From: Polytrichum commune
Lineage: Eukaryota; Streptophyta; Polytrichopsida; Polytrichales; Polytrichaceae
Assembly: GCA_950295325.1 (NCBI GenBank)
Contig: OX485807.1
Location: forward strand, 50,312,440 to 50,376,439
DNA: 64,000 nucleotides
Direction of reading: 5' to 3'
Shown: positions 1 through 48,106 of the stretch, piece by piece
How positions within the stretch are numbered: the first letter of the stretch is position 1
How the letters are laid out: each line of letters opens with the position of its first letter
Translations under genes and position numbers: made by a program
Notes under the pieces: model-generated
The model's database searches: none
Seen by the model: the letters and a program-made list of their open reading frames with translations, nothing else
What the model was told of the DNA's origin: nothing

Positions 1-122
1 GGTATGGTAGTCCATCACTTTGTCAATGAGACATGTCGGTCATCTTGACAAGTAGTTCACCAAAGTTTAAATTTTGTATTCTATAAGAGTGTGCATCTTG
101 ATCGCCATTTCTGGTTGTGTAG

Positions 123-2198
123 GTACCTATTGCAGACCTTATGGCCACGAGAGAGGTTACCTACTCTGCATGTTTTCAACAGTTTCTTCTTTCCAAAGTT
201 GGCGGGGACTGACACAAGTGAGCAAAGCAGGTCTGCGTTTGAACGAGTGAAGAAGTGGACCAAGAAAATTCCAATTTTTGAGAAAGATTACATCTTCATC
301 CCTATCAACCAGAGGTGACAACGGTTTGTTGCAGTCTTATATTGTGTGCTTTTGAACCTCTATTAACGGAGAAAGTACTTGATCTTGCCTTCCACTCGAA
401 AATAACAACATCCTTGAATTTACAGTATTTTGTACTGAAACAAGATTTCTTGCAGGTCACATTGGAGTCTCATCATCATTTGTCATCCGGGACACATGTG
501 CAATGCTGATGGTAAGGATCGGTCCAATCACTTTGCATAAATTCGAGGTTGAACAATTCTTTTCACCAAGGTATCAATATTTGTGCCATACCTTGCGCTT
601 TTTGCCAATATCATTGCTTTCTAAGGGTAAAGAATGGCTGAGCCAAGTTGTTTTGGATGCAGGTCCATCTGGTGTCCCCGTTGGAGATCCTTGCATTTTG
701 CATTTAGACTCGTATGAAGGAACTCACCATATTGGCTTGGAAGACTGCATCAAAAGGTTTGCACTAGCCTACATGCTCATGTCCATTGATTTCTATTTTG
801 TTTGCTCTATTTCCTTCCTCGAAACCACAACTATTTCTCAGGTTGGTTGTTTAATCTGAATTTTGCAGCTATCTTGAGGAGGAATGGAAAGAGCGAAATC
901 AAAATGCAGATGCTAGAGGATATTTTGATGAAATACACTTTATTAGTACGAAGGTCCCTCAACAAGATAACCAGTGTGACTGTGGCATCTTTCTGTTGCA
1001 CTATGTGGAGCTTTTCCTAAAAGTAGCACCTACGAGGTTCAGCTTGAAAAGCATTCGTAATTCGGAACCAAACTTTGTAAGTATGGGGACCCATCATTTA
1101 TATTTCCACTCATATGTGCTTCTGTTCCACTTGTTAGCTCTTAGTGATGTAAATATAATATGACCTGACCTCCTGTTTGGTGGGTTCTTCAATAGCTCAG
1201 AGAGGGTTGGTTCAAGCCATCTGAAGCCTTAGCAAACCGCCTCTTCATTCAACAACTCATTATTTCCCTTGCAGAAGGGAGAAGTGCAGCTTCTTCGAAG
1301 GATGCTGAAGAGGCAAGCGACTTTGAGGCTAATGGAGAGTTAGCAGGAGTGAGTGAATCTATTAATTGCTGACAAATGGGATCATGAGAAGCTGAGAGGC
1401 TTCAATATTCAAAAGAGAAATGAGTTTCTTCTGTCATTGAATGTGCAATCTCTAACGTACTAACCCGTAACAAGGATGGCACAAAGGTAGTTCTCGATAC
1501 AATCAGTTGTTGAATTTGGGATTCTTTGAGGAGTTGCAATTTTCGAGTTCTCAAACTTGAAGTTTGTGGCTTTCAGAGTTCTATGGAATGTGAACACGAC
1601 ACCCACAAAAGTGGAAGTGACTTCTTCCCAGAGGTATCACAGGTCCTTGGCCCACATACGAGGTGAGAAATCCTCAACTGAATATTTTGAATCAAGCAAC
1701 AAATATATTTCATTGGACATATAAAAGAACCTCTTAAGAAATTTGACTGAAAATCAATGGATAATAATACACAAATTTTCTAACATTCTTAAGCCTTCCT
1801 AAGGGTGCAACCTTGGAGTCCTCTAGCTTGACTTGCAAAATTGTTCGTCAACACTGATCTAAATCGGATTTGAATTGGGTGGATATTAGATATTGGGTGT
1901 AATTAAAACTTATTTTAGAATATAAAATAGATATGTGCTTTGGAACACATAATTTTGACATATGATATAATTATTATATTCTTCTATATTCTTATTATAT
2001 GATATCATAAGCCTATATCCCAGTATGTCTTGACATATCCTCTTGATCTCCCCCTTAGATAATATGGGAGTTGCCAGCTTAGGGGTTTTACCATCCAATG
2101 AAGCCGAATGTAGAGACGTGGAAATTAATGTGAATCATAGTATTGCAGAGAACGAAGGGATTCTCAAGAAGAAGAGATCTTGCCCGATACGGAAGTAG
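123..2198 (+). CDS. ULP2-like SUMO protease (C48 family), 3' part, multi-exon
   Basis: SUMO-specific cysteine protease that removes SUMO from nuclear proteins; the gene begins upstream of the window. Exons deduced by phase: 123-314, 456-511, 663-756, 869-1076, 1196-1348, 1577-1662 and 2078-2198 (stop). Seen: the conserved stretch FNSFFFPKLA and RVKKWTKK..FEKDYIFIPIN, then HWSLIIICHPG (catalytic His, codon 460-462), CILHLDS (catalytic Asp, codon 707-709) and DNQCDCGIFLLHYVE (oxyanion Gln at 972, catalytic Cys codon 981-983). The exon at 1196 encodes the family's WF.P.EA helix. Every junction up to 1348 is GT-AG and phase-compatible. The acidic Ser-rich tail from 1577 onward is less certain; a 12-nt microexon at 1475-1486 is possible, and the 2078 acceptor is one of two phase-compatible choices (the other is 2149). 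The catalytic residues are intact, so this part looks functional. Confidence 0.87.
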
Positions 2199-2348
2199 CA
2201 GTAACTTTTCATGAGATGCTCGTTGGTTCAGGTAAGTGATTGGAAGCATGATGAAACTCAAAGCTTCCAAATTTGAGTGACTTTTCCATGCAAAAAGATT
2301 GATTTGTTGCTATAATCAAATTCTAAAATGAAGTTATCTTTGGTCCAG

Positions 2349-5300
2349 GAAGAGAAACTTTCCCCTCGGAAACACATTACAAAGAAGTTGGACCTAGGCA
2401 ACAAGATTTGCAAACTATGGGATACACCCGTAGCCTTCGTAATACACTACATCAAAAGCCATGCCGGTTGATTGAGGATCCCACAAAGTGCCAAACCACT
2501 ACAATTATAATACCTATGTTGGGCACGATGAGAGAAGTATACTTCATTTCCCTTTTTGATGTTGATGTATTTTGTTTAGTGAGGAAGAGAAGTGGACATC
2601 AATCCTTAACTCTTGAAGGTCCAAGATCTCGTTTGGTTAGTTGAGCACTTAAAACACAAAAATCCTATATCTCATTCTATAGAAAGATATGTCATTATTA
2701 TGTTGAACAAGCAAGTCACAAATTGACATACAATCTTCATCAATAGTTCAAATGTATGAACCTTAACAAAATCATCCACTCTATGTCTTGTAGTCCCTAA
2801 ATTAAGATAGAAATTTTCAAACACAAAGGATTAAGTGTATGTAACATAGAATCATTTTTAATTGTGTTATCATATATGTATCCAACATTTTGTTTGGTTC
2901 TAGAGGCATGTTGTGGGGATTAAGATTTCAAGCACAAGTAGAAAGTTGTACATTAGTCAACATGTATTTAATGTTTCTTAGGTGTTAATCTCCAAAAATC
3001 ATTGATAATGATTCATGCATTGCACAAGTGTGAAAACAACTTGTAATGTGTAGATGTTATGTTTAAGGTGTTTTTAGCAACTTTCGTATTTGTTTCGGAC
3101 GAGGAGATTTAGATCCAATTAAGACTTTCATCTTAGTTACTTGAGAAAATAAAATCATAACGCAAGTGAATAAATGAATGAGAGTTGTACACTAACTCCC
3201 CTCTAGACTTAGATTACGTTTACCATTTCACTATATATTTTTATTAATTATAGTTTTGCTAAGTACCACCTTTAATTAACTCAAGGCCTTAGCTTATGCA
3301 AGTACCATAAGCAAGTGGAGTTGATACTCTTGAGTAGCCTATAGACTATAATAATAGTGCTATGATACCTATTCGAATATATTTGAAATTGTTGCAACAA
3401 TTGACCTTAACCATTTTGACATTTATATGTTTGATTCTCATCAATAATTAACATTTTGAAATTAAGGATTGATGAATATTGGAAATGTTTACCTATAATA
3501 GAAAGAGAGAAACATCTGACACATGTATGGTTTTTGACCACGCGATTTGACTTTCTAATTTCAACAGGTTCACACACTAGATTATTTCGACCAAGGAGAT
3601 TCATTGCTGCTTTGGGGTGCACAGTCCTCTTACATGCTCAAGGATTGGAAGCATGTGAGTTTTGAAAAGGTTTAGGAAAATTTTGAGTTATTATTTACGT
3701 GCCATGGACATTTCTACAATACGTAAAGTGTTGAGTGTTGTTCATGTGATAAAGATAATAAGTTGAAAATGAAATTGTGGTTTATTCTTTTAGGGCACCC
3801 CTATTCCTGTATCCTCATGGCAACTACTTTGTGATGGAGTTGGTATGCCTCGGAGCCATTGCCTTCCAAATTCTAAGCATTGTAGGCATGGCACGCGCGT
3901 AGTGGAGGCTACATCAACAACCATTGGTATTTATGATGTTTTTGACCGTAAGGTAAGGGTCATACATAGCTTTGAGGATGAATAGTTTTCTCTCTTTACA
4001 CATTATTTTATCACATACAACTTTTCTAATGATGTTTCTCATAGTTGCTTTTTTTAAAAGATCATGGCCCCTTTCATTGCAATGTAAACACATTTGTGGT
4101 AGAACATGGTAATCATCTCCATTAATGTATGTCTTTGATTGATTGTAAAGGAAAATCCCCCACACTTCAAGGATTGGTCACCTTTGCGGAATATCAAGCT
4201 TGGTTATCCAAGGTTGGATGAGGTATTTATATTTCATTTCCTTTTGCCTATGATGTGAGTTTGAAGGGTTGGGGAATTTACCATGATGGTAAATACAACA
4301 TTCACTATATTGGTGTTGTTATTTAGTATTGGTTTGAGAATATTGACATGTGTGGTATGTCACCACCAACACATCATGACAAACAACACAAACGGCACAA
4401 GCTTACTTAGACATTTGACAACTTGATTATATGTATAATCATATACATAATAATATTAAGTGTCATTTCAATATATCTTTATTTTAGTTGGATATTATAT
4501 TTGGATATACTAAAGTTGTTATTGCAACCAACATTCATATTAATTGTCATTAGAAGTGTACATCAATGTCATTTAAGTTGAAAATAATATTATGATATAA
4601 GTCTATACTTTGACATTGTGGTAGTTTTAAAATAATGCTATTAAACTTTATCTGGCATATCCAAAATAGGTGTTTAAACCGAGAGTTAGATTTTGACATG
4701 TGATAATCTATATGAATATGTCAGGGAATATGTAGTCCTCATTCTTTAATTTATTTTTGACATCATTCATAGATCCATGCCATAATTTCAAAATTTTAAA
4801 CATCATAAAAATGCATACTAGAATCACATAATTGTATTCAAACCAATACTGAATCTTGGAAGTCCTTCCAATGTCTTCAAAATATAATGAATGGTACTTG
4901 CAATATCTTCATGAAAATCCACATATTCAAATTATTGGAAGGATAATATGTCACAATCTATATGTCTAGACGAACCTATGTGGTATGAACTACGTAACCA
5001 AGAGCTATGCAGAGAATGTTTGAACAACATGAAGATGAAGAAGGGATAATAGACAACCTTTTGCTCTCCTCTTCTGAACTTCCTTACATCTTAGCTAAGT
5101 ACACTAAATAGGTAGATTAGTGTTAGATGAAGATTAGTGTTAGATGCAATAGTTACCTAAAACACTAATTTTCAACTGAAATTACAATTAGTGTTTGAAT
5201 AGGGTTTGAACAAATTATACCTTTTACGAGGTTCTCATATTCTTCTTCCTTCAATTCTTCATTCCAAGATTTACAAAATATCGTCTAACACTAAATGCGC

Positions 5301-8300
5301 TCATGTAAATATTTAAAGTTACTACTTGGTACAAATAGTGTTAGAGTTGACATTTAGTGTTCTAACACTATAGAGACAATTTACATTTAGCGTTTTCGTC
5401 GACTATTAGTGTTTCCAACACTAATCTACCTATTTAGTGTAGTTACATTTACAAATGAAAAATATGACCCAATATATTTATGCATTGTATCTAAAGTGCG
5501 GTGTTTTAGTGGAGTGATTTGAGGTTTTAGTGCAATCCTACTTACATGGAACCTTACACGTGACACCATAGTGTAGGTTGATGGTGGGATTGGTAAAAAT
5601 CCAACCCTACACCAATTTTTGGAGGAGGTTTACTTTCCACGAAGATCTAAATGAACAAGTTTTGAATTTCTAATTCTTGATGGACAAACATAGTTTATAA
5701 AATTTCACACAAATGAAAACATAATTCATACTGTCAAGAAACAAATAAACAAATAAAGATTGGACCATGAAATTCATGGAGTACTACATAGGGGGTGATC
5801 TTAAGATGCTTTAAAATCAATAAAATGTTGATCAATTGTTCCGTGGATAATTACATTTGTAGGTTGTACAATAAGCAAATTCACACATTTTAGCTTTGAT
5901 CAAACTTATGGGTGTAGAAGTAGTTGTTAATTCACACACTTTTGGTTACTCACAAAAGAAAAAGAAAAATATGGTGAAAGATAATAAATACATGTTATAT
6001 TCACCAAATACATAATATGAGTGTGAAATCATGGGTGTGCAATTGACTAAACTTGGATTTTACATCAATGCATCAAGTGTTGCAAGGTGTTGGTTTAAAT
6101 GATGTCTAAATTTGAAAATGAAATTTATACTATCTTTAGTTGTGTGATATTGTTGCATTCTTCCCATCCTACCGTACATATGCATACATGAATATAAATG
6201 ATCCATATTCAAATACATAGAACATATATATGATAACCATTGTCAAATGTCATATATTATTTCCACATTATTTTTTTAATAAGTTTCAATTTCGGCATAT
6301 ACAAAGGAAAAGCTCGCTTTAATACTCATAGGGGTTGGATTAAACATACCATCTAGAGAACAAAATTAATAGTAGGGTCTTTATCACACAAAAAAAAAAT
6401 CAAATGATTGATTGTTTTATTCCATTGTAGTGGTTCATGTGATGATAATCGTGGACTATTTCAAATTAAATCTACTTTATGAAGGTTAAAGTGCATATTT
6501 AAAGCATGAAACGTTCATCATCAGAACATGAAACATACAAAGAGTAGAAGAAATCTTCGTCACCTTCAAGGTGTTGGTTGTTGGCTCAACCACTCCAATA
6601 TCTCATGAAAGAATGGTTATTGCTATTTGACTTGCAAGGAAAAAAAACGGATAGGGAGAAAAGTAAAAACACGTTAGAGTGTGGTTTTGTCCCTTGCTTG
6701 AAGAAAACCCTTTTGTCTTTCGGGACAACATGTGCGTGACACATTTAGGTTTCTTGAAGATCACTACTTAGTTGTTTTGGAGACTTGAATCTTTACGATA
6801 AGAAAATCCCAATCATCACTCTATGAAAACTTGGATTTTGGTAGTTGTGTTATGAATGTGTACAAACAAATATGATTAATGTTCCATCACCATGATAAAA
6901 TTTGCTTATATAAATTTTATTTAAATAAAAGCAATATCTTCATTAAATGGATTGTTATATGTTTTTATTCTTTGAATGTTGTTTTTCAATGCAACTAATA
7001 TATGAATTGAGGGGTTTTCTAAACTCAAATGTTATACAAAGTAGTTTTGGAGTTGGTGCTAAGATGACATCAATATGTATGAACATTAATCTAGTTGAAA
7101 CATTAATGTGGAGGGTTTCATAATATGGCATTTGGATTTAACATATTGGTCTTCCATCAATGATTTTAGTCGTGATATATACATTAAACCCAAATATAGA
7201 AATAATTGTTTGATAGTCATATAATTTTATTTTATAGTAAGTCTACGCCAAATGCTAATGTTCAAACCAATAGAGTTTGAACATTAGCATTTGGAAACAA
7301 ACTTGCGATTGGCATGGATCTCTTCAAATATTGATTGACTTTCCATTGAAGATTTGTGTGGGAAGGCCGGTGTAGATCTTCATGTTCACACAATATGTGA
7401 AATGTTGTTAACAGTTCTATAGAATGTGATATCAAGTAAGTCCAAATATGTAGTGGATTTAAATAGCATGTTGGTTTCCTCTAGGAAACATGGGAGGACT
7501 CTTGAAGTCAAAATGGAAATTATGCTTGAATATTCAGCCTCATAGCTTGACAATTTGTTTGTTTCGGTTAAATTTGTCATTAGTCGACATGAAATGTAAG
7601 GTAGTTATATACACATCTCATAGTATACCAATTGACTTTGAGTTCCATACTTGGATATTTTTGTAGCTAAAATTTATAGAGAGAAAATGATTTTGAATTG
7701 ATGATAAATGAAGTGGAGTATTCTAGATTAACAACGGCACAATGTATCAAAGTGCTTCATGTTTAGGTGATTGCATTATTTTGTATGTGCAGGATGAAAT
7801 TACCAATGTCCACCTACATCCACATCTTGACATTGTATTTTGGGGTACAAAGCATGGTGTTATTGGGGCCTATGATTCCCAAAATGAGGTACAAAATTAC
7901 TACCAAAATCATACATGTGGAATACAAAAATATGCGTCGATAAATGATAACTTATTAAAGAACTAAAGATTATCTTATTTACGAGAGTCACTTTTGTAGT
8001 CCAAAGAATGTCAATATGGCACATGAGTTAGACCTACGTGATGGTCTTAACTTCCTCTTGAATAATTTGTTGTTGACTTGTAGTTGCAAATAAGATGACC
8101 CAAGATAGGCACACAGTGGGAATCAATTACACGATTTGCAAAAAAAAAAGTTGATGTACGCATAATTTGAAGATGATTAACTAAACCATCTCAAGCAAAG
8201 TCCAATGCATGCACTCTACCGTGCACAGGGGTGCTTAACAAAGGTGCTTATTTGAATAAATGTGCACATTGAACACATAAGGTGATATCGTTGAAGGTAT

Positions 8301-10442
8301 AGTTTGTATGCATAATTTGGGTGATTAATATGATGTGTATAATATGTAAAATGACAATAGGCCCATGATTCGAACATGAATGCAAAATCACAACAATAGC
8401 CATGAACAAGTGCATATGTTATGGGATACTACATATATTTAAAGCTCTATGTAATATCTACGCTTGGATTTGAAGGTGGAGCAAACACGTTACTTCTAAG
8501 TTTGTTGAAGAGTGCACCCCTCCAAATAACTATTATTCGCATTGGACTATTTTAACGTAGGTTGATTAATACATGGAAAATTTATCTTGGATCGCAGGAT
8601 TTCACTAGAAGAGTGCATCTCCCTCAATTAGGGAAGTATGCCGTAAAGCATCCCATACAGGGCCTAATTTTTTCCATCGTTCTAAATATGTTGGTTATTT
8701 GTTGCAATGACGAACACAAGGTAATTTTTCTCATATATGAAAGTCATCCATACACTTGAGTTTCCATTTATGTTCATGCCAAAGTCCCCTTAGAAAGCTA
8801 CAACTTTGTTATCATTTCACCTTTTGATTATGATGATGTGTATTGAATCATGTTGAAATACAATTGAATAAAAGCTCGTGTTCTTTTTTGTATAGTTTAT
8901 ATCCTATGACTCCGATCCCAAACTATTGGGTTCAAGTAAATTAACACTTAGTTATGTTCTAACATGCATGTTTGTGGTGTCATTAGTGGGGTATATTTAC
9001 ATGGACACTCAATGATGAGCACATGGAGAGAATAAATGGATTGGACTACCACGATTCTTGTGACCTCCACAATGACCAAGTTCAACTCCTTGTTACAAAT
9101 ATAGACAGCTTAGCCATTTGGGATTTGCAACAACGAAAGGAACTCCACATGGTAAATATTAAATTCTTCTTAAGACCTTGATTCATTCATTGCACTTTTT
9201 TAGCAATCACGCCTTATTGCGATCATGATGCATGGTACACTTAAAATTGTTTTTTGTGTCACCAATTCTATTCAAATTCAAATTCTTTTTGGGATCTTGA
9301 TTCGTCCATTGCACTTTGTGAGCAATCATGCCTTATTGTGATCGTGATGCATGGTACACATAATAGTGCATTTTGTGTCACCAATTCTATTCATCTTGCT
9401 CAATATTAATTGTAAACCACCCATGTAGTGTCACCAGCACTGAATATGAATTTAAATTTATTTGTCATTCCTTGTAAAATAAATTCTGCATTACAAATTT
9501 ACTATGTTGCAATTATTGTCACTCACTAAGTGATTTTTCATCCAAATGTCAATCATCCATGACAATAATATTTCATTTCCGAATTATTAGGATGCAAGAT
9601 ATACCAAACTTTGTTTCAATAAATGGCAAATTTGGATGGACTAAAGTAATTTGGGATGAAAGTATTTAGTAAACTTACTCACAAGAAGTGTCATGAGAAC
9701 AATTACCAGAGTGACATGAAATACCACATGAAAGTGCATCCAATATATGGTGTAGTATGTTGATGTGGTAGCTATTATACTTATGTGTCCCTACTCAACC
9801 CATAATGAAATTCCCACCTCCCGTTCGTTGACGTTTGGAATTCGTTCTCCGCAGTGGGACCTCAACGACACAAATGTCGAAGCATGGATACGTTGTGCTA
9901 AGTACTCATGTGACGGTGAGCTTGTGTATGCCGGCTTTGCCAACGGTTCGATTGGCGTATTTGATGCCACTGCTTGTTTACAACTACGTTGTCGAATTGC
10001 ACCATCCGCATACAGCCCAAATCATCAGTCTCCCATGTACATATACTAATACCCCAATCCATGCGGAAGTCATATCCAGATTTTCCTTCTCTGCTAGGCT
10101 GCAGTAGAACATGAATTGTTTGTGGCTGTGGAGCATAATATGTGTAGGTGTGGATGTTACTGTTTGCAGATATCATCTATAGTTGCAGCAGTTGGAGCTC
10201 TTCATAAATTCAATGCCATGCTTGCGATTAGATGGAGTTTGCGATGCTTTGATGGAAATTTTGATTCAACTTTTGTTGTCGATGCCAGGATCTTTTGGAA
10301 GATTGTAGCGCATCCTCAAAAGCGCAACCAATTTGCAATTCATTTGTGGTACGATTGTGTCGTATATGTAATTGAGCCATCACATGAGTTGGGAGGAGAG
10401 TGGGTTTGCAAGGCCAATGAAGGAGTTGGCAGACAAATTTGA
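2349..10442 (+). CDS. TOPLESS/TPR-like WD40 co-repressor, C-terminal half, multi-exon
   Basis: Exons resemble the WD40 half of plant TOPLESS-family transcriptional co-repressors. Probable exons: 2349-~2540 (contains TRSLRNTLHQ, like the family's K-T-V-A-R-T-L-N-Q), 3568-3654 (SLLLWG blade), 3794-3952, 4151-4222, 7793-7888 (VHLHPHLDIVFWGT), 8598-8720 (HPIQGLIFSIVLNMLV), 8987-9151 (HNDQVQLLVTNIDSLAIWD), 9855-~10043 (YSCDGELVYAGF then LRCRIAPSAYSP) and a last exon of uncertain start ending at 10442 (KIVAHPQKRNQFAI then VIEPSHELGGEW). Six consecutive exons are phase 0, open and flanked by GT-AG, and their order matches the family. The LisH/CTLH N-terminus is absent, and a large part of the propellers, expected between 4222 and 7793, was not found. 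Sequence is far diverged. It could be a diverged 5'-truncated gene, a fusion with the upstream protease, or a pseudogene decaying slowly. Splice sites are inferred, not proven. Confidence 0.62.
2645..3567. other. Intron or intergenic AT-rich stretch
   Basis: No ORF, RNA or repeat that I recognise. It is AT-rich and lies between the ~2349 exon and the 3568 exon of the TOPLESS-like series, so it is probably intron. Short overlapping ORFs near 3407-3665 are shadows of the 3568 exon region. Confidence 0.5.
5102..5439. mobile_element. CACTA-like MITE with 24-bp perfect inverted ends
   Basis: The outer ends are exact inverted complements: the left end begins CACTAAATAGGTAGATTAGT and the right end reads its reverse complement up to position 5439. 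TA lies directly outside each end. About a dozen copies of the 8-mer AACACTAA or its complement (some imperfect) are scattered through the 338 bp, the pattern of subterminal transposase-binding repeats in CACTA elements. The flanking duplication (TA, not a clear 3-bp repeat) does not settle the superfamily. There is no coding capacity. It sits inside a long intron of the TOPLESS-like gene. Confidence 0.75.
7248..7294. repeat. Perfect 20-bp inverted repeat with 7-nt loop
   Basis: Left arm 7248-7267 reads CCAAATGCTAATGTTCAAAC; right arm 7275-7294 is its exact reverse complement; loop 7268-7274. It lies in the presumed long intron. It could be a small fold-back element or a hairpin in the transcript. 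The stem is short for a typical plant miRNA precursor. Confidence 0.85.
9157..9392. repeat. Tandem duplication, period about 119 bp
   Basis: Two head-to-tail diverged copies containing CTTGATTC.TCCATTGCAC, then TGATGCATGGTACAC and TGTGTCACCAATTCTATTC. Both lie inside the intron after the 8987-9151 exon. Confidence 0.8.
9440..9770 (-). repeat. Diverged fragment of the TTAGTGTCA MITE family
   Basis: Shares with 23350-23636 the blocks ATTTGTCATTCCTTGTAA, GTGATTTTTCATCCAAAT and CACAAGAAGTG in the same order. These are the reverse complement of internal blocks of the full copies at 11094 and 31067. Its ends are eroded. Confidence 0.6.
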
Positions 10443-10566
10443 ACTAATTAGACTTGATTGCATGCAATCACACTTTATTAGTTTGAATGTATGTAAATAC
10501 TTTTGGAAATAGAAGGCATTAACTAGAATATATTAAGCTAAATATTCTCAAACAAAACACTAATTT

Positions 10567-10990
10567 TTGTTCCATTTTAGGATGACAAAGACCCTTTCAA
10601 TGGTAAGTCATAAAAATGTTGACCTCAATGTTGATGAGGGTTTCGTAATATTTTTGACTTCCAAGTTAATTACATGCTTTATTGACGGTTTCACTTCGAA
10701 CATGAAATCCCAATCAATTGCTTATTTACTCAATGAAAGTGAACATATATATTGGATTTTGGACCTTGAAGATGAAGTGCACTCAATATGGGTTACATGC
10801 ACAAGCGGCCCTCAAGAATGCAAGGGCAATTTTATTTTTCAAAGTCGGGCTGAGTGGGTAGCACGAAATAAATTTTAATTTCTTTTTAGATTTCTTTTGT
10901 GGGGGCTGCCCGAAAGTGCCAAATCGCAGGCCCCGGCCCCTATCCACCTACCCCTAAAAGTTCGTAGGAGTCAACGCCCGCCGTCTATAA
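10567..10990 (+). repeat. Element 'b': dispersed repeat with conserved reading frame, copy 1
   Basis: Translates to a peptide with FLTSKLITCFIDGFTS, MKSQSIAYLLN, WILDLEDEVHSIWV and QECKGNFIF. The same peptide is recognisable in copies at 30548-30935 and 37508-37905 (+) and 29711-30075 and 35325-35712 (-). A GC-rich end follows with GGGGGCTGCCCGAAAGTGCC and a TTCGTA.G motif. I do not recognise a protein family. Similar reading frames in several copies suggest a once-coding source, but individual copies carry stops and shifts. Confidence 0.65.
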
Positions 10991-11093
10991 CTAGCGGTTG
11001 GACCTTCCTAATTTGCAATTACTTACATGATAAAACAATTCACCAATTGAACGTGTACCCTTTAAAACCATATTTGAACCTTTTTTATAACTA

Positions 11094-11470
11094 CGCTAAA
11101 TAGGTTACTTAGTGTCATATGATATTTTATGTCACTATGGTAACTTCTCGGATGACACTTCGTATGAATAAACTTACAGATGTTGTCATGGGTGATGGAT
11201 GAGTTCATCCATTGGCCAAAACCCTACCTTCTCTTGTCAGCAACTTGTGATGAGATGTTGCCACAGAAGATTTAAATTTGAATGAAATTTTGTTTGGTAA
11301 ATGACAAGAATTGCAACACTGTAAATTTATAAGCCCAAAAAGGAATTTACATGGAATGACAAATAATGTTGGGCTAACATGAAGTGTTGGTGACACTATA
11401 CCATAGCCTACAATTAGTATTGAGCAAGACAATTAGAATTGGTGACAGTGAATATCATATTTAGTGTACT
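11094..11470 (+). mobile_element. TTAGTGTCA MITE, full copy 1
   Basis: Ends are inverted: left GCTAAATAGGTTACTTAGTG, right CATATTTAGTGTACTA. Compared with the copy at 31067, the end consensus is C(A/G)CTAAATATGATATT(T/C)AGTG. The internal part is non-coding. The left end shares about 17 of 20 bases with the end of the MITE at 5102, so both probably belong to one CACTA-like group. Confidence 0.7.
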
Positions 11471-12960
11471 AAGGGGGCTACTCAACCTTGCAAGTACGTG
11501 CCGAACCTCATTTCTTAGTTACATACTAGCCACCAAACCTCACCAAGTAGGCATTGAACCTCACTCACAATTCATTACCAGTCGCCAAGCCTCGCCACTA
11601 GGTGCCGTGCCACGTTACTAAGGCCCAAACCACACGGGAGGAAACTTGCATGAACGGCGGTGAGTTGGATGAATAGCATTGGTTCAAATGAGCAAGTGGT
11701 TGCCACATGAGAGAAAGTATGGGGAGTGGCAACAATGACTTTTTAGCTTTGGATTTTGCTTCGGAATCTACTTGGCAATAAAGTAGAGTGACATGGCACA
11801 ATAAATGTAGCTCACAACTACCAGGCACTAGTGCCCGGAATTCCACAGTATAAGGAGAAAAACAAGGAAAAGGAGACTTTTTAAAAGCAAAGTGCCATGT
11901 TGGAGGAAGTTGTGAAACTTCCTCTGGCTCTCGTGTGGAATGCACCTTAGTTACCAGAGCACAAGATGACAGTGAATTTTCAACACAATCCAAAATACGG
12001 GACACAATAATCTGTCATATTTGGTAGTGTCAGCATAGGCTACGTAAGTGACATTTGATGCAAAGCCAATTGTAACTCACTGGGAAATGTTGCCACCGGT
12101 GCAAGTTTTTGCCCCTATTTTTATAAGTTTTTGGTTCATTTGAGAGAGAAAAAGGTATAAAATAAGAATTAATTACAAAGTGAAACTCACCTTATTATAT
12201 TTGGTGCCATCTATCATCATGGAGTGAAGAAATAGACCTTTAACCATGTGTGCATCTGAATGCTTCAAGGCTTCTATGACAACAGTTGTGAAGAAGTTAG
12301 CAAATTTGGGGCGATCGAGAAGGGATAGAGAATTGGAAACTTTACGATACTTGAGGAGCCATTTTGCAAGCAAACAATTCATGAAACACAACAATTCTTG
12401 CACTCAACAATCCCTCTTTACTCTAGAAAATTTTGCACCTAACAATGCTAATCCATGCAATCCCACTAACACCGAAGAGTTGCCCCCTATTGCAAGCCAA
12501 CTCGGACTCTAAACCCACCCAATCCACTGATGGAGAATGTTTGTTCAAATTGCACATACACTCCAAGCATGCACCAAAAAAATTTCGAACATAAAAAGTT
12601 TTGTATGCAAAACAACCAACTCCCAACCAAAAAGTTTAGTTGAATCAAAAAATAACTCCAATCATGTCTGGAGAGATTTTCAAAAAAAAATCAGATGAGA
12701 TCCAAGTGTTTTCAAATCCAACTGGTTACATGTTGATATCTTCCGATTATCCTTTTGGTAATTTTCTATAGACTCCCGTGAAATGGTCGATGATTTGCCT
12801 AAAGTCTTGAACTTCAACCAATTATTTCTCAAGCTCAACGGGCCCTTCTCTCCCCAACCGTAAGTTGGCCCTGGGTGAGGAAGAAGTATGCTATGCTTCA
12901 TCTTCCATGGTATGCTATGCTATGCTATGCTTCTTGGTACTTGTAGGTATTATATTCTCT
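11471..12960. other. Composite-repeat blocks e, g and h, no clear gene
   Basis: This stretch holds repeat blocks shared with 29.1-29.7, 31.4-33.0 and 40.9-42.5 kb. On the minus strand block h gives a short ORF (12173-12403) with KWLLKYRKVSNSLSLLD..FANFF and EALKHSDAHMVKGLFLHSM. The copies at 32287-32499 and 41697-41915 keep the same peptide, so it may be a captured exon of an unknown gene. I cannot name it. Confidence 0.5.
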
Positions 12961-22082: not shown

Positions 22083-22448
22083 ACGTATATGTTATTGAGC
22101 CATCATATGAGTTGGGAGGAAAGTTGGTTTGCAAGGCCAATCAAGTGAACGGGTAGTAGTTTTCAATCCGGATTTGAAAAAAAATAGATTTGTTTTGTGG
22201 GCACTGCCCGAAAGTGCCGGATCACGGGCCCCGGCCTCTATCCACCTCCCCTGAAAGTTCGTAAGGGGAGGGTTAACATCCGCCATCTGTAAGTAGCGGT
22301 TGGACCTTCTTGATTTACAATTAACTTACGTAGTAAAACGCTCCACCAATTGAATGTGTACCTTGTAATACCAGATTTAAACATTTTTGAGAACTACGCT
22401 AAATATGATATTTAGTGTCACATGATATTCTATGTCACTATGGTAACT
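22083..22448 (+). repeat. Composite-repeat scrap
   Basis: Carries the end of block a (GTTATTGAGCCATCA.ATGAG), joined directly to block c (GGGCACTGCCCGAAAGTGCC) and the left end of MITE d (22397-22448). Most of element b is deleted. Confidence 0.75.
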
Positions 22449-29010: not shown

Positions 29011-30179
29011 CAATTGGGAGGACCTATGTATTTGATGAAAGAATCAAGAACCACACATTTTTGGCTTTTGTGTATTTTATTGAAAGTGTAGGTTGGTAAT
29101 AGGCTGCATATTACTCATGAACATCAAAGTGTGGTCTTATGGGAGACAATAATCTGGCAAAGTTGTTGGTGTCAGCATAGGCTATGTAAGTGACATTTGA
29201 TGCAAAGCCAATCGTAACTCACCGGGAAATGTTGTCACGGTGACTTTCTTGCCCCTATTCTTATAAGTTTTCAGTTCGTTTCAGAAAGAAAAAATGATAA
29301 AATAAAAATTAATTACAAACTAAAAATCACCTTATTCTTTTTGGTGCAATCTATCCTCATGGAGTGAAGAAATAAACCTTTAACCATGCGTGCATTTGAA
29401 TGTTTTAAGTCTTCTACGACGACAATTGCCAAGAAGTTAGCAAATGTGGGGAGATCAAAGAAGGGATAGAGAATTTGAAACCTTGCGATTCTTGAGAAGC
29501 CATTTTGTGAGCAAACTATTCAAGAAAGACAAGATCTTGCACTCAACAATCCTTCTTTACACTAGAATTTTAGCACCTAACACTGCTATACCATGCAATC
29601 CCACTAACACCGAAGAGATAACCCCTGTTGCAAGCTAGCTTGGACTCTAAACCCACCCAATCCATTGATAGAGAATGTTCGTACAAATTGCACATGCACG
29701 GCAAACATTAAACACCCCCGTACGAACTTCCGGGGGTGTCAAATTTGGGGCGGGGCAACTCTCTCGGGAAATTTTTGAACCCCACCGTAAATTATTGCCT
29801 GCCCCGTCCAACTTCAAAAAAACTTTGTCCTTGCAATTTTGAAGGCCGCTTGATTACAAATCCCATATTGAGTGCACTTCACCTTCAAGGTCCGAAATCC
29901 AATATATATGTTCACTTCCATCGAGTAAATAAGCAATTGACTGGGATTTCATTATCAAAGTGAAACTATCAATAAAACATGTAATTGACTTGGAAGTCAA
30001 AAATATTACAAAACCCTCACTAGCACTGAGGATATAATTTTTGTGACTTACAATTTGAAATTGTCTTTGTCATTCTAAAATGACACTTAAATAAGTGTGA
30101 TGATTTAGTATGTGTATTTTATAATATTTTAGGTAATGTTGTGTACTCTCACATGTATTCATACGCATCCATTAAATGT

Positions 30180-30410
30180 CGTGTTTGTCAATAGATGGAG
30201 TTTGTGATGTTTTGGCGGAAATTTTGATTCAACATTTGTTGTTGATGGCAGGGTCCGGAAGATTGTAGCACATCCTCAAAAGCGCAACCAATTTGCAAGT
30301 CTTTTTTGGGGCAAGACAGTTGTATATGTTATTGAGCCATCACATGAGTTGGGAGGAGAGTGGGTTTGCAAGGCCAATCAAAGGAGTTGGAGACAAATTA
30401 GGATTAATTA
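30180..30410 (+). pseudogene. TOPLESS-like last-exon fragment
   Basis: Encodes DSTFVVDGR, KIVAHPQKRNQFAS and VVYVIEPSHELGGEWVCK, clearly related to the last exon at 10442, but in a frame with an upstream stop and without the preceding exons. Another copy is at 36700-36900, with a downstream scrap at 37255-37340. Confidence 0.8.
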
Positions 30411-31066
30411 AGATTAATTACATTTAATTACATTCAATCACACTTCATTGGTTTGAATGTATATAAATACTTTTGGAAATAGAAGGCATTAACTAAAATA
30501 TTATAAGCTAAACATTCTTAAACAAAAAACTAATTTTAGTTCCATTTTAGAATGACAAAGACCCTTTTAATGGTAAGTCACAACAATTATAACCTCAGTG
30601 CTAGTGAGGATTTTGTAATATTATGACTTCCAAGTTAATTATGTGTTTTTTTGACGGTTTCACTTCTGAAATGAAATCCCAATCAATTCTTTATTTACTC
30701 AATAGAAGTGAACATATACATTGGATTTGGACCTTGAAAATGAAGTGCACTCAATATGGGTTATATGGACAAGCGGCCTTCAAGAATGCAAGGGCAATTT
30801 TATTTTCAAAGTTGGGCGGAGCATGTAGCACGTTTCGATCGTGATCTGGAAATTATATATTTGTTTTGTGGGGGCTACAGAAAGGTGCCGGATTGTGGGC
30901 CATGTCCCCTATCCTCCTCCCTTGCAAGTTCGTAGGGGAAGGGATAACGTCCACCATCTGTAACTAGCGGTTGGGCCTTCTTGATTTGCAATTACTTACC
31001 TGATAAAACAATTCACCAATTGAACATGAACCCTATAATACCATATTTAAACTTTTTTGATAACTA

Positions 31067-36049: not shown

Positions 36050-36499
36050 ATTGATTTTTTTAGTTCACCGATTTATCATAAGGTGATATATATTATTTTG
36101 ACATATTACAAATGTTTGAGCAATCAAACCCGTGCAAAATAAATGAATTATGAACAAAAACAAAATGTCTATGACAACATGTCATAATTATATATTGCAC
36201 ACGTTGATATCTTGCGATATTTATCAAAATAACCATGTGGAATTCGAAGCCACATCATGGCCTTGGAAACAACTCATGGAAGGTTAGAAAATAAGCTTAG
36301 AGCATCCAAGGCCACATCATTGCCCCTTGCCAACTAATTAATATTTATAAAATAACGATGAGGGAGAAAATAGGTCTTACATGCCAACTCGGAGGTGTTT
36401 CACTAAAGTAAGCTCCATCCAAGCTTCTTGATGGACTCATCTGATTTTCGTTACTAGATGACTTTACTTGAGTGTCACGAATCCCCGGCCAAAATCGGT
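35716..36499. other. AT-rich spacer with an (AAT)n microsatellite
   Basis: About ten ATA repeats at 36020-36048. No gene seen. Confidence 0.6.
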
Positions 36500-37994
36500 G
36501 TCCCATGTACATATACTAATACCCCAATCCATGTGGCAGTCTTACCCGATTTTGCCTTCTCTGCTAAGCTGCAGTAGAACATGAATTGTTTGTGGCTTCG
36601 CAGCATAATACGTGTAGGTATGGATGTTACTGTTTCCAAATGACTATAGCTGCAGCAGTTGGAGCTCTTCATAAATTACATGCCGTGCTTGTCAATAGAT
36701 GGAGTTTGTGATGGTTTGACGCAAATTTTGATTCAACAGTTGTGGTTGATGGCAGGATCTGGAAGATTGTAGTGCATCCTCAAAAGCGCAACTAATTTGC
36801 AATTCGTACGTGGGGCAATGGAGTATATGCTATTGAGCCATCACATGAGTTGGGAGGAGAGTGGGGCTTGCAAGGCCAATGAAGGAGTTGGCGGACAATT
36901 TCTAGGGCTTAAGGCCTTCTTCAAGTGGTTGTAGAGATATGTGGACAAATGTATATGACGACAATGTTGCTATCGCACAATCGCATAATTACACACAAGG
37001 ATCATTTCAATTTATCATGCAATTAATTATATTGATAGCAACATGCAATGTGGCAGTAACCTAAAAAGTTGAATCATTGCGAAAAAACTTAGATTGTCTC
37101 TTCATAAGAAGCAAGGCTTATGAATTCTAGTCAAAATCACAATAATGATTCATGCATGCAATTCGAATTATACTTGAACATTGTAATGTATTCATCTTTG
37201 CAGTCACATTGTTTTTTTCTCCACAATATTCCATTTTATGACCACATATCGTATGTTGCGCAATAGAGTTGTATATGTAATTGGGCCATCACATGAGTTG
37301 GGAGGAGAGTGGGTTTGCAAGGCCAATCAAAGGAGTTGGCAGACAAATTAGGATTAATTAGGATTCATTGAGTGTAATTAGACTTAATTACATTCAATCA
37401 CACTTATTAGTTTGAATGTATATAAATACTTTTGGAAATAGAAGGAATTAAGTAGAATAGTTTAAGCTGAACATACTAAAACAAAACACTAATTTAAGTT
37501 CCATTTTAGGATGACAAAGACCCTTTCAATGGTAAGTCACCAAAATTATAACCTCAGTGCTAATGAGGGTTTTGTAATATTTTTGACTTCCAAGTAAATT
37601 ACATGTTTTATTGACGGTTTCACTCCGAAAATGAAATCCCAATCTATTCCTTATTTAGTCAATGGAAGTGGACATATTTATTGGATTTTGGATCTTGAAG
37701 ATGAAGTACATTCAATATGGGTTATATGGACAAGCGGCCTTCAAGAATGCAAGGGCAATTTTATTTCTCGAAGTCAGGTGGAGCGAGTAGCAGTTTTCGA
37801 TGGTGATCCAAAAAACTTTAGATTTGTTTTGTGGGGGTTGCCCAGAGGTGCCGGATTGCAGGCCTTGTCCCCTATCCACCTTCCCTGAAAGTTCATAGGA
37901 GGAGGGTTAACGTTCACCATGTGTAAGTAGCGATTGGTTCTTTTTTATTTGCAATTACTTACCTGATAAAACAATTCACCAATTGAAAGTGTAC

Positions 37995-46942: not shown

Positions 46943-47939
46943 GGTGGTATAAATTTTTTAATCAAAAAATGCATGTTCAGACATGGTTTTCTTCCTTTTT
47001 TTGCTTGATCCCGGATCAAATCAGAAAGGCTCACTTGCATAAGCTCCATCCCTATGAAACATTGTCCCTTCTCCGGGCTATTGCTACAACAAAACAATTT
47101 GACAATATTTGGATGGCTGAGACGAGATAAGATTCCCGCTTCTCGTATGAAAATAGCCATATCCACTTCCGTGCGAAACTCCTTCTTGGCGCACGGAATG
47201 CCAAGCCATTCTGTGCTACAAACACCACTGGAGCCAGACCCACCTCCAAGAAAGGCATCATATATCCAAGTGCCTGGAGGTTCTGTTTCCTTAACCCACG
47301 AAATTGCACTGGTATACATGTCCAACTCATTGGCCTGGCCATGTTGAGGTAGGCAGTCCAATTTTCTCAGCAAGTATTTTGCGAGGCATTGCTCCCAAGA
47401 GTTTGAGGAGTCTTCAGTGTTGGCCAAGCGCTGAAGTCTCTTCTGCAAAAGTTCTCGATCTTCAAGGACCTTATCCGGAGTTGCAGGTGAAAATGTTGAA
47501 GACTGGCGAAGATCCATAATCTGAAAATTCCATTCTCCACGCATTCCCTTGGCTTGCTCAAAAATGACATTGTAACATAAACCCATCGCCAACAAAATCT
47601 CCTGAAATGCCTCATCATTTTGTAACTGAAATATTATTGATGCTTCACACGAATTCTCATTCGAACAGTTAGAAACAAGCCGCTTTGCTTTCTCTGAGAT
47701 CGTACATAAGTTGCGTAAAGCCGGTGTAAAGGGGGTGGAAGATTGCCCACATTTGATATGAGTGCTGTGACATTCTCAAAGATTTCCACAAGTTTAGACA
47801 GCAAATCTCGACACTGAGATTCATTGAGCAGGGTATTGGCGTTTCTTGCGCGGTTGACTGTCTCTTCCGCACTGTCTTTGCAGAGCCTTAAGAAATCGAC
47901 AGGCATAACCCAGTCTCTAATGGCACGGAACGCTTGCAT
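46924..47939 (-). pseudogene. Plant MLKL-like kinase-domain protein, truncated and frameshifted
   Basis: The N-terminal helical domain starts with MQAFRAIRDWVMPVDFLRLC. In one frame it runs to NLPPPL; then a CCCCC run (about 47731) shifts the frame, after which LRNLCTISEKAKRL and NDEAFQEILLAMGLCYN continue. The kinase part has a Gly-rich loop (LGGGSGSSG), the Lys of beta-3 (CAKKEF), the helix-C Glu region and HPNIVKLFCCS, and stops near SDLIRDQAKKGRKPC. The catalytic loop and DFG are missing because repeat DNA (TTTACACCTAGAGGC) replaces them. Known family role: membrane-acting immune or cell-death proteins. This copy should be non-functional. Confidence 0.75.
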
Positions 47940-47956
47940 CTTGAGGTTCTTGATGA

Positions 47957-48106
47957 CTTAGTGTGTCTTAAACCCAACGAAGCATAACGCAGGATAGCCG
48001 GTCATTCATCTGCTACATAGCGGGCCTTGGTGTCTTAGTGTGTCTCAAACTCAACGAAGCATCAGGCTGGTCATTCATCTGCTACATAAAGGGCAGATGA
48101 ATGACC
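47957..48106. repeat. 76-bp tandem duplication upstream of the kinase fragment
   Basis: CTTAGTGTGTCT.AAAC.CAAC and GGTCATTCATCTGCTACATA occur at 47957 and again at 48033. The end of the second copy also pairs with GCAGATGAATGACC (about 48093-48106) as a small hairpin. Confidence 0.8.

What the first reader, a model, noticed from the sequence alone, without database searches (positions are those of the whole stretch)
1577..2540. Possible SUMO-protease/TOPLESS-like fusion transcript
Seen: the ULP2-like exon ending at 1662 is phase 2. Two acceptors fit it: 2078 leads to a stop at 2198, while 2149 gives an open exon (2149-2231, IFs none) whose phase-1 end at a GTTCAG/gtaagt donor joins the open exon starting at 2349, where TOPLESS-like sequence (TRSLRNTLHQ) begins. 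The TOPLESS-like part lacks its own N-terminus and only about 150 bp separates it from the protease stop. Known: TOPLESS-family co-repressors are linked to SUMO in plants. Inference: one locus may make either a SUMO protease or a protease joined to WD40 repeats.
Basis: partly seen in the sequence, partly recalled or inferred. Interest (0 to 1): 0.7.

Follow-up and report, generated by a model that had tools for sequence, protein, structure and literature searches.

The report
Fast-diversifying TOPLESS-derived WD40 gene cluster
What looked like a SUMO protease fused to TOPLESS is one member of a locally multiplied plant gene family: copies of the last WD40 propeller of the normally conserved TOPLESS co-repressor are changing their protein sequence faster than their own introns, at the propeller positions known to vary in fungal self/non-self receptors, beside protease and cell-death-kinase-like genes.

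Summary
The splice signals and open frames reported at 1577-2540 are present, and TOPLESS (TPL) sequence does follow an ULP2-like protease. The whole unit is repeated in five places on the same chromosome. The TPL part (window 2349-10441) is only the second WD40 propeller, with intron positions as in the genome's canonical TPL. It also follows an MLKL-like kinase with no protease between (C5:47.92 Mb; C2), so its open 5' exons are not evidence of a protease fusion. The window's protease copy is broken just upstream (4-base deletion plus TGA); four sister copies are open there.

The unexpected result: between copies the TPL-like exons differ 1.2-2.4 times more than their introns, gene-wide omega is 1.62 (2dlnL 24.9 against 1), yet frames stay mostly open. 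The canonical TPL pair gives 0.30. Variable residues sit at the propeller positions under positive selection in fungal HET-D/E receptors.

Best reading: a TPL-derived propeller family under diversifying selection, probably decoys or sensors for effectors that bind TPL. A protease-TPL transcript is possible (compatible phases; one copy carries an in-frame genomic fusion) but unproven. No RNA data; single genome; species unknown.

The parts
122..1348 (+). ULP2-like SUMO-protease (C48) exons 122-314, 456-511, 663-756, 869-1076, 1196-1348; catalytic H, D, Q, C present, but the first C48 exon (left of the window) is frameshifted in this copy
   Evidence: Pfam PF02902; exon-by-exon homology to canonical ULP2 at C6:40.46 Mb; 4-bp deletion and TGA
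1577..1666 (+). X exon: last ULP2-linked exon; AGG TGA at 1661-1666 is either stop or phase-2 donor (1662|GTGAGA)
   Evidence: alignment of copies; ~69% similar to a segment behind the kinase in kinase-linked copies
1681..2080 (.). stretch with dispersed low-copy repeats elsewhere in the genome; about 1797-2067 absent from C5_47 and L025
2149..2231 (+). exon B: open in 8 of 9 copies with or without ULP2; in-frame ATG at 2216
2349..2536 (+). TPL-like exon W1 (linker plus start of second propeller), hypervariable 3' half
3568..4222 (+). TPL-like exons W2 3568-3654, W3 3794-3952, W4 4151-4222
   Evidence: GT-AG, phase 0 as in canonical TPL
7793..9151 (+). TPL-like exons W5 7793-7888, W6 8598-8720, W7 8987-9151
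   Evidence: exon divergence above neighbouring introns
9855..10441 (+). TPL-like exons W8 (9855 to about 10036) and W9 (about 10281-10441, stop)
   Evidence: 46% identity to recalled TPL probe; 53% of the combined W7-W8 probe to canonical TPL on C1

Best explanation
The downstream exons are a member of a locally amplified gene family made from the C-terminal (second) WD40 propeller of TOPLESS. Shown: the family lacks the TPL N-terminus and first propeller, keeps TPL intron positions, is repeated in units together with ULP2-like and MLKL-like kinase genes, and evolves with whole-gene omega above 1, exons faster than introns, with variation concentrated at d-a loop and b-c turn positions of the propeller. 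Inferred: the propeller is expressed and its top face binds variable non-self ligands, most likely pathogen effectors that target the second propeller of real TPL; the copies act as decoys or sensors and are driven apart by an arms race, with sequence exchange between copies. The ULP2-like gene is a neighbouring part of the unit, broken in this copy.
For: Units 90-99% identical over most of 9 kb; canonical TPL only on C1; exon boundaries of W1-W9 match TPL; exon vs intron divergence L028 0.152 vs 0.064 (z=10), X_011 0.136 vs 0.070, C2 0.163 vs 0.085, C5_47 0.170 vs 0.137, also for transversions alone and non-CpG sites; omega 1.62, 2dlnL 24.9; canonical TPL pair pN/pS 0.30, exons slower than introns; 2.7-3.9 stops expected per lineage under neutrality, none in W2-W9 of 7 of the 8 copies compared; positions 7, 9, 25, 27 carry mean 3.57 residues vs 1.91 elsewhere (p 3e-9), shift control peaks at 0, as in HET-D/E (PMC1805685); an effector binds TPL's second WD40 domain (Jsi1, PMC8126959); neighbouring kinase best matches 6lba and 6ka4, plant MLKLs by my knowledge.
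Against: No expression data; start codon and full gene model unresolved; some copies damaged (X_011 one stop and a frameshift; C5_47 one net frameshift in the alignment; X_012 and L025 damaged). The position mapping was done by hand after the variability line had been printed. Ligand, decoy role and immunity are inference. One genome only, organism not identified.
Confidence: 0.6

Rival explanations
1. One reading: the ULP2-like exons splice through X and B into TPL exons, giving a SUMO protease joined to a WD40 propeller (in some units, perhaps not in this one).
For: Compatible phases and conserved GT/AG at 1348|1577, 1662|2149, 2231|2349; L028 carries an in-frame genomic join of ULP2-like exon to W1 with W2-W9 free of stops; ULP2-like frames open in four sister copies apart from small in-frame losses.
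Against: TGA 1664-1666; TPL block with the same B exon exists without ULP2; L025 TGA in B; this copy's protease frameshifted; an in-frame ATG at 2216 is available.
Confidence: 0.25
2. Decaying gene fragments: the block is a set of non-functional duplicates and only looks fast-evolving.
For: Some copies carry stops or frameshifts; ULP2-like and kinase parts are not distinguishable from omega 1.
Against: Neutral decay cannot make exons diverge faster than introns nor omega 1.6 with open frames and variation focused on loop positions.
Confidence: 0.12
3. Modular receptor: kinase (or ULP2) exons splice via X into the hypervariable propeller, so the WD40 part is the sensor of a chimeric protein.
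For: X segment occurs behind both kinase and ULP2; in L012 kinase, ULP2-like and TPL-like lie in order on one strand; phase-2 donors and acceptors are compatible.
Against: The kinase frame has its own stop about 430 bp before X; no donor identified; no RNA.
Confidence: 0.15

Closest known systems
TOPLESS/TPR co-repressors (second WD40 domain)
   Same: sequence, exon order, intron positions and phase of the C-terminal propeller
   Different: no LisH/CTLH or first propeller in the cluster; multiplied locally; omega 1.6 instead of 0.3
Fungal NWD/HET-D, HET-E receptors (PMC1805685)
   Same: WD40 propeller diversified at d-a loop and b-c turn positions; exchange between copies likely
   Different: seven non-identical blades of TPL origin, no NACHT domain seen, plant genome
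Plant integrated or stand-alone decoys of effector targets
   Same: duplicate of a known effector target (Jsi1 binds TPL WD40-2, PMC8126959)
   Different: no NLR fused to it was seen here; decoy role not tested
ULP2-class SUMO proteases
   Same: C48 domain, catalytic motifs, exon structure of the canonical gene on C6
   Different: long C-terminal tail missing; 5' end replaced by sequence found downstream of the kinase in other copies; broken in the window copy

Membership tests
TOPLESS/TPR | second WD40 propeller with TPL exon structure | tested here: met
TOPLESS/TPR | LisH-CTLH N-terminus | tested here: not met
   PF21889 only on C1
TOPLESS/TPR | first WD40 propeller | tested here: not met
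   only the two canonical genes on C1 match
ULP2/C48 protease | C48 domain with H, D, Q, C | tested here: met
   (motifs SHWS, DSYEG, PQQDNQCDCG)
ULP2/C48 protease | uninterrupted catalytic frame in this copy | tested here: not met
   4-bp deletion and TGA
ULP2-TPL fusion gene | a spliced mRNA across 1662/2149 | not testable with these tools
   no RNA data
Diversifying recognition family (NWD-like behaviour) | positive selection at propeller top positions | tested here: met
   hand mapping, one genome
Fungal NWD receptors | NACHT domain and near-identical tandem WD40 repeats | tested here: not met
   no NACHT match in the exons and adjacent ORFs scanned; blades differ

The most novel reading that the evidence does not exclude
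A plant immune-receptor family in which exchangeable signalling parts (MLKL-like kinase or ULP2-like protease) are spliced through a shared X exon to a hypervariable propeller taken from TOPLESS: a counterpart of the fungal HET/NWD receptors, with the effector target itself turned into the sensor.
Probability: 0.15. Interest if true: 0.92.

Novelty: new variant of a known kind. Interest (0 to 1): 0.7.

Why it matters
TPL is a highly conserved hub that many pathogens' effectors bind. A cluster that copies one of its effector-binding domains and lets it diversify would be a ready test of decoy evolution outside NLR receptors, and would show WD40 propellers used in a plant for variable recognition as fungi use them. 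It also shows that gene models here should not merge protease and WD40 exons without RNA support.

Tried and rejected
Pfam scan of single exons (C48 clear, WD40 only weak). Pfam on the spacer ORFs between X and B gave nothing, and a dispersed relative on C1 showed no recognisable gene (L034). Codon-position counts could not decide between the 2198-stop frame and the B frame. Transposon capture was considered (5-base CAGGA overlap at the ULP2 left and right joins); no terminal inverted repeats were noticed, but none were searched for systematically. CpG decay as the cause of fast exons rejected by transversion and non-CpG counts. Papers: one search combining TOPLESS, positive selection, WD40 and decoy gave none; one combining SUMO protease, ULP, TOPLESS and fusion listed none on a protease-TPL fusion among the 8 titles shown.

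Full report
What is there. The window lies at C5:50312440-50376439 of a 408 Mb plant genome held as 64 contigs, with contigs C1 to C7 carrying the matches; the organism was not identified. The ULP2-like exons at 122-1348 and the TPL-like exons W1-W9 at 2349-10441 form one unit that recurs four more times on C5 (L009, L010, L011, L012; 90-99% identity over most of 9 kb), with partial copies L025, L026, L027 and L028. The canonical genes are elsewhere: two tandem TPL genes on C1 and ULP2 on C6.

The reported splice structure. Comparison of copies changes their meaning. The 2078 acceptor is lost in four of six relatives that cover it. The 1662 donor coincides with a TGA in the protease frame, which a GTGAG donor in that phase always creates, so this does not decide between stop and splice. 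Exon B with W1 stays open in kinase-linked copies without ULP2, and in-frame indels there (C2, C5_47) suggest it is coding, but independently of the protease. The divergence profile falls sharply just after 2536, which supports that donor.

The protease. In L009-L012 the first C48 exon reads ERF.GLVYP(Q/E)ND; in the window copy a 4-base deletion and a TGA break it, while the other exons are open. ULP2 exons diverge like introns and omega is not different from 1 (1.32, 2dlnL 1.6).

Two different upstream partners. At C5:47.92 Mb and on C2 the same TPL block follows a 577-codon kinase frame whose best solved relatives are 6lba and 6ka4, plant MLKL structures as far as I know. In L012 kinase, ULP2-like and TPL-like follow each other. 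In the ULP2 units the sequence left of the protease is the one that lies between X and TPL in kinase units, so the protease cassette sits inside the former kinase-TPL spacer. L028 lost the protease body and joins its first catalytic exon in frame to W1.

Selection. Nearly every TPL-like exon diverges more than its neighbours: for example W6 0.24 against 0.07 and 0.04 in flanking introns between window and L009. The excess holds for transversions (1.5-3.1 fold) and non-CpG sites. Whole-gene omega for eight copies is 1.62 and rejects 1; without W1 it is 1.71. The canonical TPL pair gives pN/pS 0.30 with exons slower than introns. Neutral drift would have made about three stops per copy.

Where the changes fall. 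Using canonical TPL as a guide I mapped the four WD40 positions found under positive selection in Podospora (7, 9, 25, 27; PMC1805685) to the seven blades. They carry 3.57 residues on average against 1.91 elsewhere, and sliding the map by any step lowers the value. The mapping was made by hand after the variability line had been seen, so the p-value (3e-9) is optimistic; the shift control is the better guide, though it too uses the hand map.

How it probably works (inference). A propeller with a constant frame and variable top loops binds something that changes. Effectors bind TPL WD40 domains: Jsi1 the second, SIX8 the first. Copies of the second propeller could trap or sense such effectors; the MLKL-like kinase next door would suit a cell-death output. 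None of this was tested. The selection signal shows only when copies are compared, so it could not be seen from the window alone; the fusion idea remains open until RNA is read.

Limits. One genome, no RNA, gene starts unresolved, some copies damaged, counts of copies are lower bounds.

Noticed in passing
window 5101-5433: Insertion absent from the sister copies aligned, with inverted ends (ACTAAATAGGTAGATTAGTGTT ... AACACTAATCTACCTATTTAGT): looks like a recent miniature transposon in the TPL intron.
   Followed up: no
window 9354-9576 and 11258-11475: Inverted repeats (about 71-75% in other copies) flank exons W8-W9; two other places (L013, L035) hold just the piece 9517-11463, as if it moved on its own.
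   Followed up: partly
window 22084-22145, 30171-30432, 36489-36901, 37268-37390: Further fragments of the TPL-like 3' region inside the same window (from coordinates).
   Followed up: no
window 46987-47984 (-): Partial copy of the MLKL-like kinase, 54-71% identical.
   Followed up: no
window 2430-2536: The window and L010 are about 99% identical except here, where the window resembles L009: sign of sequence exchange between copies.
   Followed up: partly
L012 with L037 (C5:50452500-50470600): Unit with kinase frame, ULP2-like and TPL-like all present in one order; may be close to the starting arrangement of the ULP2 units.
   Followed up: partly
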